From the NCBI RefSeq assembly GCF_030506365.1, contig NZ_CP073092.1:930001-994000 (forward strand): 64,000 nt of DNA, written 5' to 3'. Within the stretch, counting starts at the first letter, position 1. Each line of letters begins with the position of its first letter. The notes under the pieces were generated by a model. That model did not search any database. It saw nothing but the letters and a program-made list of their open reading frames with translations, and had not been told where the DNA came from. This document shows, in pieces, positions 37,225 to 42,005 of the stretch. Both the position numbers and the translations under genes were made by a program. Source of the stretch: Corynebacterium tuberculostearicum (GTDB taxonomy: Bacteria; Actinomycetota; Actinomycetes; Mycobacteriales; Mycobacteriaceae).

Positions 37225-37550
37225 CGTGGGAGTTCCTCCAGAGAGAGTAGTGATCAGGAACATCAATCTAACTGCACTGAAGTTAAGAAAACCTGGGATC
37301 GATGTAAACGTGCAGTAAATTTTTAGGTCCCTTGAGCGGGTGTTTGGAGGAAGCGGTGGTTATTAATGAAATCCCTAATGAGGGTCGGCCCCCCTCTTTA
37401 TCTAATGGACCAAACAGTCAACCGACTGGTTGATTGCAGTTTCAACCAGTCCTGTGATTCAAAACGGGGATGAATGTAGAAAAATGAGTCCTAAGAGTAT
37501 TTGATCCATCGCTAATCCAGCCGTGACAGCAGTTGGGAAGGAGAATGACC
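37225..37550. promoter_or_regulatory. Divergent intergenic region with two dyads
   Basis: About 325 bases without a gene between the ABC operon and the DUF2871 gene. TAACT (37269-37273) and AGTTA (37281-37285) form a dyad close to the ABC start. TCAACCGACTGGTTGA at 37418-37433 is a perfect 6-bp-arm dyad of the kind bound by TetR-type repressors, with a half-copy TCAACCAGTC about 10 bases further right (near 37441). No regulator gene is adjacent. Confidence 0.45.
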
Positions 37551-37994
37551 ATGAAAGCTTTGGATTGGGCATCTATTTTCTACCTCGTGTTGGGCTTGGG
37601 CGCTGGCGTGTTCTACCGAGAATTCACGCGTGCCAATGATTTCCCCGCGGGCGAGTTCACTCAGCTAAGCGTGGCGCATACTCACTTGCTAGCGCTCGGT
37701 TTCATGATGAGCCTTATCTTCTTGCTATTGGAGAAGGTCTTTGGTCTGTCACGCAGTCGCGGTCAGTTCAATGCGTTCTTTTGGCTGTATAACGTCGGCG
37801 TGGTCGTCACCGTTGGCGTCATGATCTGGCACGGATGCTTGACCGTAATGGGGGAGGAGTCCTCTGCAATGATCTCTGGTATCGCTGGTCTTGGGCACAT
37901 CCTCATCACGGTAGGCCTAATCGCATTCATCGCAGCGCTTGGTAATGCCATCGGTGAGTCCCAAGAAACTAAGTCCCAAGTAGCAGGTGAATAA
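37551..37994 (+). CDS. DUF2871 family membrane protein
   Basis: A 147-aa protein with four membrane helices of the DUF2871 family. FTQLSVAHTHLLALGFMMSLIFLLLEK and a second His segment (MIWHGCLTVMG) suggest a heme- or metal-binding His pattern, but this is inference. The ATG at 37551 stands 7 bases after AAGGAG and is preferred to the ATG at 37545. It is downstream of the TetR-type dyad. A 15-codon ORF follows at once (37997-38044). Confidence 0.82.
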   Translation: MKALDWASIFYLVLGLGAGVFYREFTRANDFPAGEFTQLSVAHTHLLALGFMMSLIFLLLEKVFGLSRSRGQFNAFFWLYNVGVVVTVGVMIWHGCLTVMGEESSAMISGIAGLGHILITVGLIAFIAALGNAIGESQETKSQVAGE

Positions 37995-38180
37995 CAATGA
38001 GTGAGACTGTCTCAAAGCGCCACAACGTCGGCTCTGCGAGATGAGAGCTCACCAAAATAAATGACCCTCATGGCCCCTACATAGTATTTTTAAGGGAACT
38101 GCTCGGTCACAAGGAAAGTGCTGGTAGTTGAGGCGAAAAATGGATTTTCCTAGTCTGCTTGGCGTGTTTGTAATCGCAGA

Positions 38181-38774
38181 TTAGATGAGAATGGACTTTT
38201 CATCTTCTATAAAGAGCGCTTGCCCATCTCTCAAAAGCAGCAGGTTCCATTCTCGGCCGTAGGTCTCGACAGTCTTACTGATGACCTCTATTGAATAGGG
38301 CCCAGTGGTTCCTTGTGCATGAGGAACAATGACATGAGGAGTGAAGTTTAGCCCTGTATATTCGGTGAGCTGCGGTGCAGTTTTGGAATCGTCCATGATT
38401 GATGCCGGCTCAATTGATGGGCCGGCAACAACTGCTCCTGCAGAACTTCCAGCGTAAAATTTTCCTTGCTTTACTGCCCCAGTCAGTGCACGGTCGGCAC
38501 CCGTTTTCTTCAGTACGTCAAGTAGGCGGAACACGTCGCCGCTCGCGACATAAATGCAGTTGGCTGATGCAATTTCATTTTGAAGATCGCTTGAGTTTGT
38601 TTGCGATAGGGTGAGAGGGACTAAGGTCTCTGCTGTCTCTCCAATTGCCTTCAGTTCTGCCTGTGCAAATGGTGCCTGGCGCATCTCTGAAGCGGCATCA
38701 TCGATATACAGCACTCGCCCCGAAATGTAGTCGCCGATGTCCGGGTGCAGGAATGAAGCGAGAAGAAGTTTCAT
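38181..38774 (-). CDS. Peptidase S51-like (type 1 glutamine amidotransferase fold)
   Basis: A 197-aa protein of the dipeptidase E/cyanophycinase-like group. The nucleophile elbow is GKFYAGSSAGAVVAG with the catalytic Ser in GSSAG; upstream IYVASGDVFRLLDVLKKTG matches the family's GGN-type strand with changes, and a His in TPHVIVPHAQG could complete the triad. Slightly shorter than PepE (229 aa). It is transcribed away from the toxin terminator side, within the lower-GC accessory stretch. Confidence 0.82.
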   Translation of the reverse strand: MKLLLASFLHPDIGDYISGRVLYIDDAASEMRQAPFAQAELKAIGETAETLVPLTLSQTNSSDLQNEIASANCIYVASGDVFRLLDVLKKTGADRALTGAVKQGKFYAGSSAGAVVAGPSIEPASIMDDSKTAPQLTEYTGLNFTPHVIVPHAQGTTGPYSIEVISKTVETYGREWNLLLLRDGQALFIEDEKSILI

Positions 38775-38819
38775 GGGCCTAGATTACGAAATTCTTGCCA
38801 CTCCCACCATTCGAAGAGC

Positions 38820-38862
38820 AAAAGTCTCGAGACATCGACCGGAACGATGTCTCGAGACTTCG
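38820..38862 (-). terminator. Palindromic terminator of the toxin-antitoxin operon
   Basis: AAGTCTCGAGACATCG (38822-38837) and its exact complement CGATGTCTCGAGACTT (38845-38860) form a 16-bp stem with a 7-nt loop; on the minus strand the stem is followed by TTTTGC. It is about 80 bases after the toxin stop. A near copy lies at 40438-40478. Confidence 0.8.
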
Positions 38863-38943
38863 GGAGACTCGGATATTCAGCCTCCCAGCCGGTATGCCTG
38901 TCCCGGTTGAAGTTGATTCCCTAGCAGGATACTCGCCGATTCC

Positions 38944-39330
38944 CTATGGTGTAAGAAAGATTTCCGCGAGGTTAGCGAGAACCTCTTCCATAGCGGCGGG
39001 TGTAATCCCGTCCTGTGATAGGCAGTCTTGTAGGTCACTTTTGAGAAGGCGCTGGCAGTGATCGACCCTCACCCAACTTTTTTTACGTAGCCCTCCTTCG
39101 TAAGCGGCAATTTTAACGTCGAAACTCGATGAGTTACCTCCACTTGAGAGGGGGCACACGAAAATGGCCTCGTTTGACTCATCGCTGTTCACTTTGTCGC
39201 GGGAGACCACCAGAACCGGGCGACGGGTGTCATGCCAAGTTCGCTTACCGTTGGAGACGAATATTATTTTTTCGTCGCTGACGAAGTAGAGGCGGCCTCG
39301 CCGGACAACTTTCGGGAAGGATGAACTCAT
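38944..39330 (-). CDS. PemK/MazF-like toxin
   Basis: A 128-aa protein of the PemK/MazF (CcdB-like SH3-barrel) endoribonuclease toxin superfamily. Family landmarks: RRGRLYFVSDEK where MazF has the first strand, TRRPVLVVSRDKVN, FVCPLSSGG, and SWVRVDHCQRLLKSDLQ, equivalent to the SWV/DQ-R segment that holds catalytic residues. It should cut mRNA and stop growth. Its start overlaps the stop of the upstream gene by 4 nt, the usual toxin-after-antitoxin layout, but here the partner is a Panacea-domain protein rather than a MazE-type antitoxin. Confidence 0.85.
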   Translation of the reverse strand: MSSSFPKVVRRGRLYFVSDEKIIFVSNGKRTWHDTRRPVLVVSRDKVNSDESNEAIFVCPLSSGGNSSSFDVKIAAYEGGLRKKSWVRVDHCQRLLKSDLQDCLSQDGITPAAMEEVLANLAEIFLTP

Positions 39331-39926
39331 CGTTCGGTGGCGTGTCCAGCAAAAATGTTGTGGAATAGTTCTTTGCTTAATCCGTCCGTTGAATACGCGT
39401 CAATATGCGGGGGTAGAGTTTTGAGAGCGTCAACTCGGCGTCGCATTTCGGGTGAACGTTCAAAAATGTGGAGACCATTAATGAAGTCCGGCCACGCGTC
39501 GTGAATCTCATTCTTCGGGATAGTGATACCTCGAACGCCGACTCGATAATGGTGTTCATATGGACCGTAGGTGTGCGTGAAGTTTCGCAGTTTAGTGGCA
39601 GTCATCCCGCCGAAGTTTTCCCAAATGCCATCGAAGATTTCCTCGACATCGTGCGGTATAGCGTCACCCGTCGAAAATGGCTCCAAAGGGGCGGCAGGGC
39701 TATCGCCAACTCGAGACTTGATAAACCGGTACAAATCTGGCTGCGCCGGTCCGTGATCCCAAGCCTGGAAGGTTCCGGCGGATAAATCGCGGTTTTCCAA
39801 GTGTCCATAGAGGCTCTCCGCAAGGTAGGACAACTTCTGTGCCTTCATATTTGTAATCGAAGGGATCAGACCTTCATCAGACTCACGTCGGGTAGCCCAT
39901 GAAAGGAACTGCAACAGGGGTTCCAT
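39327..39926 (-). CDS. Panacea-domain (DUF4065/SocA-like) antitoxin
   Basis: A 199-aa protein with the Panacea domain known from hyperpromiscuous antitoxins. Signature segments: NMKAQKLSYLAESLYGHLENRDLSA (family pattern MKLQKLVYYAQ...) and FQAWDHGPAQPDLYRFIKSRVG (family EAWxxGPVxPxLYxxxK). The rest is helical with a charged C-terminus. It has a strong GAGGAGGTGA ribosome-binding site. It precedes and overlaps the PemK-like toxin gene. Both are AT-richer than the neighbouring core genes, suggesting transfer. Confidence 0.85.
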   Translation of the reverse strand: MEPLLQFLSWATRRESDEGLIPSITNMKAQKLSYLAESLYGHLENRDLSAGTFQAWDHGPAQPDLYRFIKSRVGDSPAAPLEPFSTGDAIPHDVEEIFDGIWENFGGMTATKLRNFTHTYGPYEHHYRVGVRGITIPKNEIHDAWPDFINGLHIFERSPEMRRRVDALKTLPPHIDAYSTDGLSKELFHNIFAGHATER

Positions 39927-40437
39927 AACTTCACCTCCTCAACTTCAATTTGATTCTAACACTAGATTGGTTCGTCCCCTCGTATCCTCGGCTAGAAGGG
40001 TGGCAATCGACACCTGTATTTTGTTTTACAGGCAGGTTCGACATGGTCCCTAAACTAATCGAACATATATTCTCATGTTATGAGGTCGTATTTATGCCCC
40101 GGGTCGCCGCGCAGGGAAATCGCCCTCCAAGTCCGCCGGTCGGCAAAACAGCCGGGAGGTTGGTCACCTCCCGGCTGTGGCTTGGACTCCCGATTAGGAG
40201 TAGTCAGTCGCCACGTCAGACGAGTACAGGCTCACGTTGGAATGTCCTTTAATTGGGCAGTTAATAGGAAGAAACATTATGTTTAAGGTTAGTCCACAGC
40301 AAGCCAAGGGAAGTGGTCGGTACTCCATCACGTGAAGTGTCCCAAGTGTTGCGTCTGCATAAACGAAACCAAACCTGGGGCACCTCTCACAACTAGAAAG
40401 TCAACGACACCAGCGCCAACCAGGGCGAAATACAACG
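39927..40437. other. Intergenic region upstream of the toxin-antitoxin operon
   Basis: About 510 bases with no credible CDS. It includes the operon promoter region, a perfect hairpin AGCCGGGAGGT / ACCTCCCGGCT (40150-40176) followed on the minus strand by TGTTTT, which looks like a minus-strand terminator with no obvious gene, and otherwise featureless sequence up to the tRNA-side palindrome. It may be scar from past integrations. Confidence 0.6.
40144..40176 (-). terminator. Orphan hairpin terminator
   Basis: Eleven-base-pair GC-rich stem, 5-nt loop, TGTTTT on the minus strand. No gene ends here now. Confidence 0.6.
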
Positions 40438-40478
40438 AAAAATCTCGAGACACCATAGGAACGATGTCTCGAGACTTC
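40438..40478 (-). terminator. Palindromic terminator, probable former tRNA-Arg terminator
   Basis: TCTCGAGACA and TGTCTCGAGA form a 10-bp stem, with TTTTT following on the minus strand. It lies right next to the left copy of the tRNA 3'-end duplication (40482-40496), so before the IS481 insertion it stood 3-4 bases after the tRNA-Arg 3' end. Nearly identical to 38820-38862. Confidence 0.75.
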
Positions 40479-40481
40479 ACA

Positions 40482-40496
40482 CGGTGCCCCAGAGTG
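40482..40496. repeat. 15-bp target duplication of IS481, left copy
   Basis: CGGTGCCCCAGAGTG occurs here and at 41930-41944. The right copy contains the 3' end of the tRNA-Arg gene. Confidence 0.8.
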
Positions 40497-41882: not shown

Positions 41883-41932
41883 TCAACGATGTCGCGACTC
41901 ATCTGTCAAACATGTCGCGACTCATGACACGG

Positions 41933-42005
41933 TGCCCCAGAGTGGATTCGAACCACCGACACCGGCTTTAGGAGAGCCGTGCTCTATCCCCTGAGCTACT
42001 GGGGC
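41933..42005 (-). tRNA. tRNA-Arg (anticodon CCT)
   Basis: Minus-strand cloverleaf: acceptor GCCCCAG/CTGGGGC, D arm GCTCAGGGGATAGAGC, anticodon arm CGGCT-CTCCTAA-AGCCG with anticodon CCT (reads AGG), T arm with TTCGAAT. Discriminator A; the CCA end is not encoded (CC then G). Its last bases belong to the right copy of the IS481 target duplication, so the gene itself stayed intact. Confidence 0.95.

What the first reader, a model, noticed from the sequence alone, without database searches (positions are those of the whole stretch)
38944..39926. Panacea-domain antitoxin paired with a PemK/MazF-like toxin
A Panacea (DUF4065) protein and a PemK/MazF-like protein overlap by 4 nt as one operon. Panacea antitoxins are known to neutralise many unrelated toxin types; MazF-like toxins usually work with small MazE-type antitoxins, so this pairing looks unusual and I cannot place it in a described set. 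Family calls are by eye from motifs listed for each gene. Both genes are AT-richer than flanking core genes.
Basis: partly seen in the sequence, partly recalled or inferred. Interest (0 to 1): 0.8.

Follow-up and report, generated by a model that had tools for sequence, protein, structure and literature searches.

The report
Panacea antitoxin guarding PemK-type RNase
Two overlapping genes on a Corynebacterium chromosome encode a Panacea-domain protein and a PemK/MazF-family protein, predicted to work as an antitoxin and the RNA-cutting toxin it restrains; such pairings are already in print, so this is an ordinary new member, though a shared tail on the antitoxin would be a likely toxin-binding part worth testing.

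Summary
Window 39327-39926(-) is a Panacea (PF13274) protein and 38944-39330(-) a PemK/MazF (PF02452) protein, both above Pfam cut-offs, overlapping by 4 nt, antitoxin gene first. The claim that the pairing cannot be placed does not hold: PemK/MazF-like partners of Panacea antitoxins, two among verified pairs, are in Kurata et al. 2022 (PMC8832971). The pair recurs in P. albus and nine further actinobacterial genomes (in three the antitoxin is below Pfam detection). These 11 Panacea cores form one clade (98/95). Yet it is uncommon in Corynebacterium: 3 of 35 Panacea genes with a downstream partner; an unnamed ~100-170 aa protein (19) and a Fic/Doc group (10) dominate. Both genes are under purifying selection (dN/dS 0.11-0.22). 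In the window the pair lies in an insertion-sequence-bounded remnant of a restriction island: the last codons of a type III res gene remain upstream. The one new lead is a short C-terminal motif on the antitoxin, in 11 of 11 Panacea proteins with the PemK partner seen and 0 of 31 paired otherwise; I propose it as the toxin-neutralising element. It was defined post hoc and is confounded with common descent. Verdict: new member of a known kind, modest interest.

The parts
39327..39926 (-). PanA: Panacea-domain antitoxin, 199 aa; core about 1-150, C-terminal tail after it
   Evidence: PF13274 43.2 bits; AlphaFold2 blocks of ten at pLDDT 76-95 to residue 150, 172-199 under 50; Shine-Dalgarno-like AGGAGGTG just upstream
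38944..39330 (-). PanT: PemK/MazF-family predicted mRNA interferase, 128 aa; start codon inside the 4-nt overlap
   Evidence: PF02452 50.7 bits; R37 and S62 invariant in 21 of 21 subfamily rows
39354..39383 (-). Codons of the PanA tail element G182-x4-L187-x2-N190-I191, proposed toxin contact
   Evidence: G182 invariant in 10 of 10 rows of A5; motif in 11 of 11 PanA with the PemK partner seen, 0 of 31 others
40194..40235 (-). Remnant: last codons and stop of a type III restriction (res) gene, upstream of PanA
   Evidence: blastn to the 3' end of G133 res and read-out YSSDVATDYS*; G133 gene is ResIII
40150..40176 (.). Inverted repeat just after the res stop, similar in G133 (likely terminator)
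   Evidence: read, second alignment; not among the terminator-like sites
38822..38860 (.). Palindrome at the left edge of the cassette; homology to G005 ends in it and homology to G133 begins in it
40439..40478 (.). Second, imperfect copy of the palindrome, at the right edge of the cassette
   Evidence: the half-site has 8 exact copies in the genome
40832..41836 (+). IS481-type transposase next to the cassette
   Evidence: NF033577 203.8 bits, below its cut-off of 224; PF13683 and PF00665 over cut-off

Best explanation
The two genes encode a Panacea-domain protein and a PemK/MazF-family protein in one overlapping pair, predicted to act as a type II toxin-antitoxin module in which the Panacea protein likely binds and blocks a toxin that would cut RNA. 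Shown: domains, overlap, purifying selection, and repeated pairing in actinobacteria. Inferred: PanT would cleave mRNA as PemK/MazF enzymes do, with R37 and S62 (Ser in the place of the usual Thr) as likely catalytic residues. Inferred: no Shine-Dalgarno was seen before PanT, so it is likely translated by coupling through the overlap, which would keep antitoxin in excess. Inferred: neutralisation would be by direct contact, with the PanA C-terminal element G-x4-[LIV]-x2-[NDQE]-hydrophobic as the likely contact with the toxin, much as the Phd-C tail of the C. doosanense Panacea antitoxin blocks Doc, while the Panacea core may sense the trigger. The likely role is guarding or backing up restriction systems against phage, or stabilising the island.
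For: Pfam hits over cut-off. Overlap and order kept in G133, G097, P. albus, G304. dN/dS 0.11 and 0.12 for PanA, 0.20, 0.12 and 0.22 for PanT. R37 and S62 invariant in 21 rows; profile alignments to Mtb MazF9 chains put their RP and T at R37-P38 and S62. The 11 PemK-paired PanA cores are one clade, 98/95, tails left out. Tail motif 11 of 11 with partner seen, 0 of 31 otherwise, 0.022 on shuffled tails. Restriction genes near the pair in G133 (mod-res), G097 (hsdM, hsdS, helicase), G734 (hsdR), and a res remnant in the window. Panacea pairs with MazF/PemK-like toxins among verified pairs, and complex formation for P. moraviensis, in PMC8832971 (passages); Phd-C tail mechanism in PMC10440598 (passages).
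Against: No activity or binding was tested. The toxin model has mean pLDDT 46.7, so its fold rests on the profile alone. No complex could be modelled. The tail motif was defined on the sequences it was counted in, these are one clade, and the tail is low-confidence in the model. P0005 (89% identical to PanA, partner not seen) lacks the Gly. Three of the 11 PanA (G869, G680, G719) have no Pfam hit. dS against P. albus (1.4-1.8) and G097 (3.1) is near or past saturation. PDB sequence matches of the toxin are weak (best E 0.017). No restriction gene was found among the one or two neighbours scanned for each of G869, G667, G689 and P. albus.
Confidence: 0.78

Rival explanations
1. Conformational neutralisation: the folded Panacea core itself, not the tail, would bind PanT, and the tail is a linker or degradation tag.
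For: Stand-alone Panacea domains neutralise directly in B. choladocola and G. mesophilus (PMC10440598 passages). Between window and P. albus residues 1-150 are identical at 113 of 150 and 151-199 at 24 of 49.
Against: Gly182 of the tail is one of only 10 invariant positions when most rows have fallen to about 20% identity to the window's PanA.
Confidence: 0.4
2. Type VI, SocA-like: PanA would act as an adaptor that hands the toxin to a protease.
For: The only NCBIfam hit of PanA is SocA_antitoxin, 40.9 bits over residues 23-73.
Against: Far below that model's cut-off of 190; the partner is PemK by Pfam; PMC8832971 favours direct type II inhibition for its pairs (passage), while saying that the two modes may coexist.
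Confidence: 0.1
3. The pair is a decaying remnant without function, left by the restriction island.
For: The cassette is cut from its island and bounded by palindromes that resemble insertion-sequence ends; the pair is rare in the genus.
Against: Both frames are intact with dN/dS 0.11-0.22 and the likely catalytic residues kept.
Confidence: 0.1

Closest known systems
PanAT pairs with EndoA/PemK/MazF-like PanT (B. ruminantium, P. moraviensis; Kurata et al. 2022, PMC8832971)
   Same: Panacea antitoxin gene beside a PemK/MazF-class toxin gene; listed there among verified pairs, with inhibition of protein synthesis by both toxins
   Different: Those two toxins had no CDD hit and were recognised by HHpred; this one scores on PF02452 directly. 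I could not compare the sequences.
C. doosanense PanA-Doc (PMC10440598)
   Same: Corynebacterial Panacea antitoxin with a C-terminal extension after the core
   Different: Toxin is Fic/Doc, and the tail there is Phd-C; the motif seen here is absent from the Doc-group PanA examined
Classical MazEF / PemIK
   Same: Toxin family PF02452
   Different: Antitoxin is a 199-aa Panacea protein; no other Pfam domain over cut-off
DarTG of M. tuberculosis (7yk3)

Membership tests
Panacea (DUF4065/SocA_Panacea) antitoxins, PanA | PF13274 domain above gathering score | tested here: met
   43.2 bits, cut-off 25.7
Panacea (DUF4065/SocA_Panacea) antitoxins, PanA | Two-gene operon with a small toxin gene | tested here: met
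   4-nt overlap with a PF02452 gene
Panacea (DUF4065/SocA_Panacea) antitoxins, PanA | Neutralises the partner and forms a complex with it | not testable with these tools
   needs expression and pull-down
PemK/MazF toxins | PF02452 above gathering score | tested here: met
   50.7 bits, cut-off 23.1; phrog_1936 MazF-like E 7e-11; no NCBIfam hit
PemK/MazF toxins | Catalytic Arg and Thr/Ser | tested here: met
   R37 and S62 invariant in 21 rows, Ser where MazF9 has Thr (weak alignment); that these are the catalytic positions is recalled from MazF work
PemK/MazF toxins | SH3-like beta-barrel dimer fold | tested here: inconclusive
   model pLDDT 46.7
PemK/MazF toxins | Sequence-specific RNase activity | not testable with these tools
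   needs an assay
MazEF / PemIK modules | Small MazE/PemI-type (AbrB or similar) antitoxin | tested here: not met
   only PF13274 above cut-off in the antitoxin
SocAB (type VI) | SocA equivalog score | tested here: not met
   NF047745 40.9 bits, cut-off 190
SocAB (type VI) | ClpXP-dependent degradation of the toxin | not tested
   bench only

The most novel reading that the evidence does not exclude
The PanA tail is a PemK-specific neutralising module (G-x4-[LIV]-x2-[NDQE]-hydrophobic) joined to the Panacea core, a counterpart for PemK of the Phd-C tail for Doc and the zinc domain for MqsR: Panacea antitoxins would then be a constant sensor with an exchangeable toxin plug, kept as one unit in a lineage spread over several actinobacterial families and often parked beside restriction systems.
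Probability: 0.35. Interest if true: 0.5.

Novelty: new member of a known kind. Interest (0 to 1): 0.3.

Why it matters
It adds an actinobacterial Panacea-PemK lineage in which toxin and antitoxin have stayed together long enough for the antitoxins to fall to about 20% identity, in contrast with the partner swapping for which Panacea is known. It also gives a concrete, cheap test of whether Panacea antitoxins neutralise PemK through the core or through a tail, and links the pair to restriction loci, hence perhaps to phage defence.

Tried and rejected
Tried without gain: the toxin has no match at E 1e-5 by tblastn in the phage and plasmid collections; PanA has only partial relatives there (6 plasmid and 42 phage records, none covering 80%). 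Viral contigs gave no toxin relative and one distant PanA relative, not looked into. DNA search of the plasmids found nothing. PADLOC matched neither protein. The toxin structure model was too poor to search with. Foldseek with the PanA model gave no match at E <= 0.001, and sequence searches of the PDB found no relative of PanA (only chance-level rows, E 0.32 or worse). My first search of the genome for the palindrome had the wrong spacing and found nothing; repeated with the half-site. The first neighbour script missed the minus-strand loci and was redone.

Considered and rejected: a MazE-type antitoxin (no such domain); chance neighbours (recurrence and overlap); a partner-driven origin of the tail motif as a proven point (PemK-paired PanA are one clade, so descent alone could explain it). 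Whether the mycobacterial toxin that pairs with another small protein arose by antitoxin exchange is open: holding the Panacea-paired toxins as one clade is not rejected (p 0.59; that tree carries a long-branch warning).

Rows dropped: L035 was left out of the 32 PanA with a non-PemK partner, leaving 31, because its match holds stops; G854 and G362 were left out of the PanA tail count and the core tree; P0005 was in the tail count but not in the tree.

Full report
What is there. On the minus strand of a Corynebacterium chromosome (window = G000:C1:930001-994000; genus from kinship to G133, whose 257,322-base contig has the length of the record titled C. jeikeium Cj37130 125), a 199-aa Panacea protein (39327-39926) is followed by a 128-aa PemK/MazF protein (38944-39330), overlapping by 4 nt. 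Pfam scores are 43.2 bits (cut-off 25.7) and 50.7 bits (cut-off 23.1). PanA has an AGGAGGTG just upstream of its start; no such site is seen in the 20 bases before PanT, so coupled translation is likely (inference).

Is it functional? Against G133, P. albus and G097 the toxin has dN/dS 0.20, 0.12 and 0.22; PanA 0.11 and 0.12 against the first two, with dS not computable against G097; dS is high (1.4 to 3.1) outside G133, so the G133 values are the firmest. In a 21-row alignment of the toxin subfamily R37 and S62 are invariant, with W86, R88, Q93 and others. Profile alignments to M. tuberculosis MazF9 chains place their RP and T over R37-P38 and S62 (weak, best E 0.017). That Arg and Thr are the catalytic residues of MazF is recalled.

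Prior art. PMC8832971 (passages only) names PemK among the known domains of Panacea partners and has, among its verified pairs, two toxins predicted to be EndoA/PemK/MazF-like RNases; complex formation is reported there for P. moraviensis among five pairs. PMC10440598 (passages only) reports that Panacea neutralises either directly or through added domains such as Phd-C on the C. doosanense antitoxin, and that most of its Panacea pairs are toxin-first, unlike this one. In the rows listed by seven searches of the held library (some lists were cut, and other papers were seen as titles or abstracts only) I saw no further paper on Panacea with PemK; supplements could not be read. The pairing itself is therefore known.

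How common. In 201 Corynebacterium genomes PF13274 matches 62, PF02452 194, and this very toxin by phmmer only 3. The PF02452 matches are mostly one per genome; in the window's genome that one lies beside a gene I take by eye for lepA. By the coordinates listed, adjacent Panacea and PemK occur in G000, G133 and G097; the list is cut, so more cannot be excluded. Of 49 distinct Panacea places examined (those for which loci were given), 35 have a downstream same-strand ORF of at least 70 aa within 30 nt: 19 of an unnamed 98-172 aa group, 10 of a group whose tested member is Fic/Doc, 3 PemK, 2 of a group whose tested member is GNAT-like below cut-off, 1 other; 13 had none and 1 no ORF. The 19 were joined by single linkage and may be two families; two were tested, neither with a Pfam hit, one with a sub-cut-off MAG6450 hit in NCBIfam.

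The lineage. A search of 396 genomes of the phylum with the toxin alignment matched 20 (at most 10 candidates per genome scored); with the PanA alignment 14. Only G000 and G304 are in both lists. G304 is a clear further pair, with PF13274 31.1 and PF02452 43.8 bits; the 17 remaining toxin matches besides G362 are weak and their neighbours were not examined. A search of 360 genomes of the class with the 21-row alignment at E <= 1e-10 matched 9 (at most 12 candidates per genome scored): G000; G667, G689 and G734 with a Panacea gene over cut-off just upstream; G869, G680 and G719 with an upstream protein below Pfam detection that aligns with these and groups with that of G734 in the tree; G854 with a doubtful upstream protein; and G362, where a 105-aa protein without Pfam or NCBIfam hit stands upstream instead. 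In a tree of the Panacea core, tails cut off, the 11 PemK-paired rows form one side of a branch with support 98/95 against 28 others; that branch is short (0.041), the two halves of the group are far apart (branch 2.02), and six of the 28 others were judged non-PemK by eye. The toxin subfamily is separate from three other corynebacterial PemK proteins (100/99, with a long-branch warning).

The tail. PanA modelled with mean pLDDT 78.3; blocks to residue 150 are at 76-95 and 172-199 is under 50. In the 10-row alignment Gly182 is one of 10 invariant positions. The pattern G-x4-[LIV]-x2-[NDQE]-[IVFMLY] occurs in the last 50 residues of 11 of 12 proteins taken as PemK-paired and 0 of 31 taken as paired otherwise. 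The miss, P0005, comes from an 876-base contig on which no partner was seen, so with the partner seen it is 11 of 11. Shuffled tails give 0.022. The pattern was written after looking at these sequences, they share descent, and many of the 31 are shorter proteins whose last 50 residues are core, not tail. It is a hypothesis.

Where it sits. From 38843 to 40235 the window matches G133 at 86.6%, and from 37416 to 38855 it matches G005, which has no match to the toxin, at 93.6%; both borders fall in one palindrome at 38822-38860, whose imperfect second copy lies at 40439-40478. In G133 the pair directly follows a type III mod-res operon; in the window only the last codons of res remain (40194-40235). 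An IS481-type element follows, flanked by an 18-bp repeat that overlaps the end of a tRNA-Arg gene (read). G097 has type I hsdM, hsdS and a helicase next to the pair; G734 has hsdR. In P. albus, G869, G667 and G689 no restriction gene was found, but only one or two neighbours each were scanned; the neighbours of G719, G680 and G304 were not scanned. That makes a role in phage defence likely, not shown.

Verdict. A well-formed, conserved member of a published kind. The open and testable point is whether PemK is blocked by the tail or by the Panacea core.

Noticed in passing
G000:C1:2133368-2133667 (L040:5054-5689): A PemK-family match, mostly one per genome, in 194 of 201 Corynebacterium genomes (list cut); in the window's genome it is a 211-aa ORF divergent from a gene I take by eye for lepA. 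Its spread suggests a household gene on the PemK fold.
   Followed up: partly
G000:C1:2013458-2013739 (L001): The genome's second Panacea gene is followed by an ORF of only 50 aa that begins like the Fic/Doc partner of relatives (126 aa in G005, G052); the toxin gene looks truncated here and in G004, leaving an orphan antitoxin.
   Followed up: partly
L149:4792-5487 (G362, same family as the window's genome): A toxin of the window's PemK subfamily stands 3 nt after a 105-aa protein without Pfam or NCBIfam hit, possibly another type of antitoxin for the same toxin; its nearest toxins are those of M. kiyosense, M. ostraviense and M. decipiens.
   Followed up: partly
window 38822-38860 and 40439-40478: A palindrome part of which is 71% like 41883-41903 near the IS481-type element end; its half-site occurs 8 times exactly in the genome, two of them about 1430 bases apart, roughly the length of an IS.
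   Followed up: partly
window 40479-40496 and 41927-41944: An 18-bp direct repeat around the IS481-type element, overlapping the end of tRNA-Arg(CCT) at 41931-42005; either a long target duplication or an attachment-site remnant.
   Followed up: no
L011:1049-1474, L037:1908-2426 and relatives: The commonest partner of Panacea genes in the Corynebacterium loci examined (19 of 35) has no Pfam hit in the two tested; an uncharacterised toxin candidate.
   Followed up: partly
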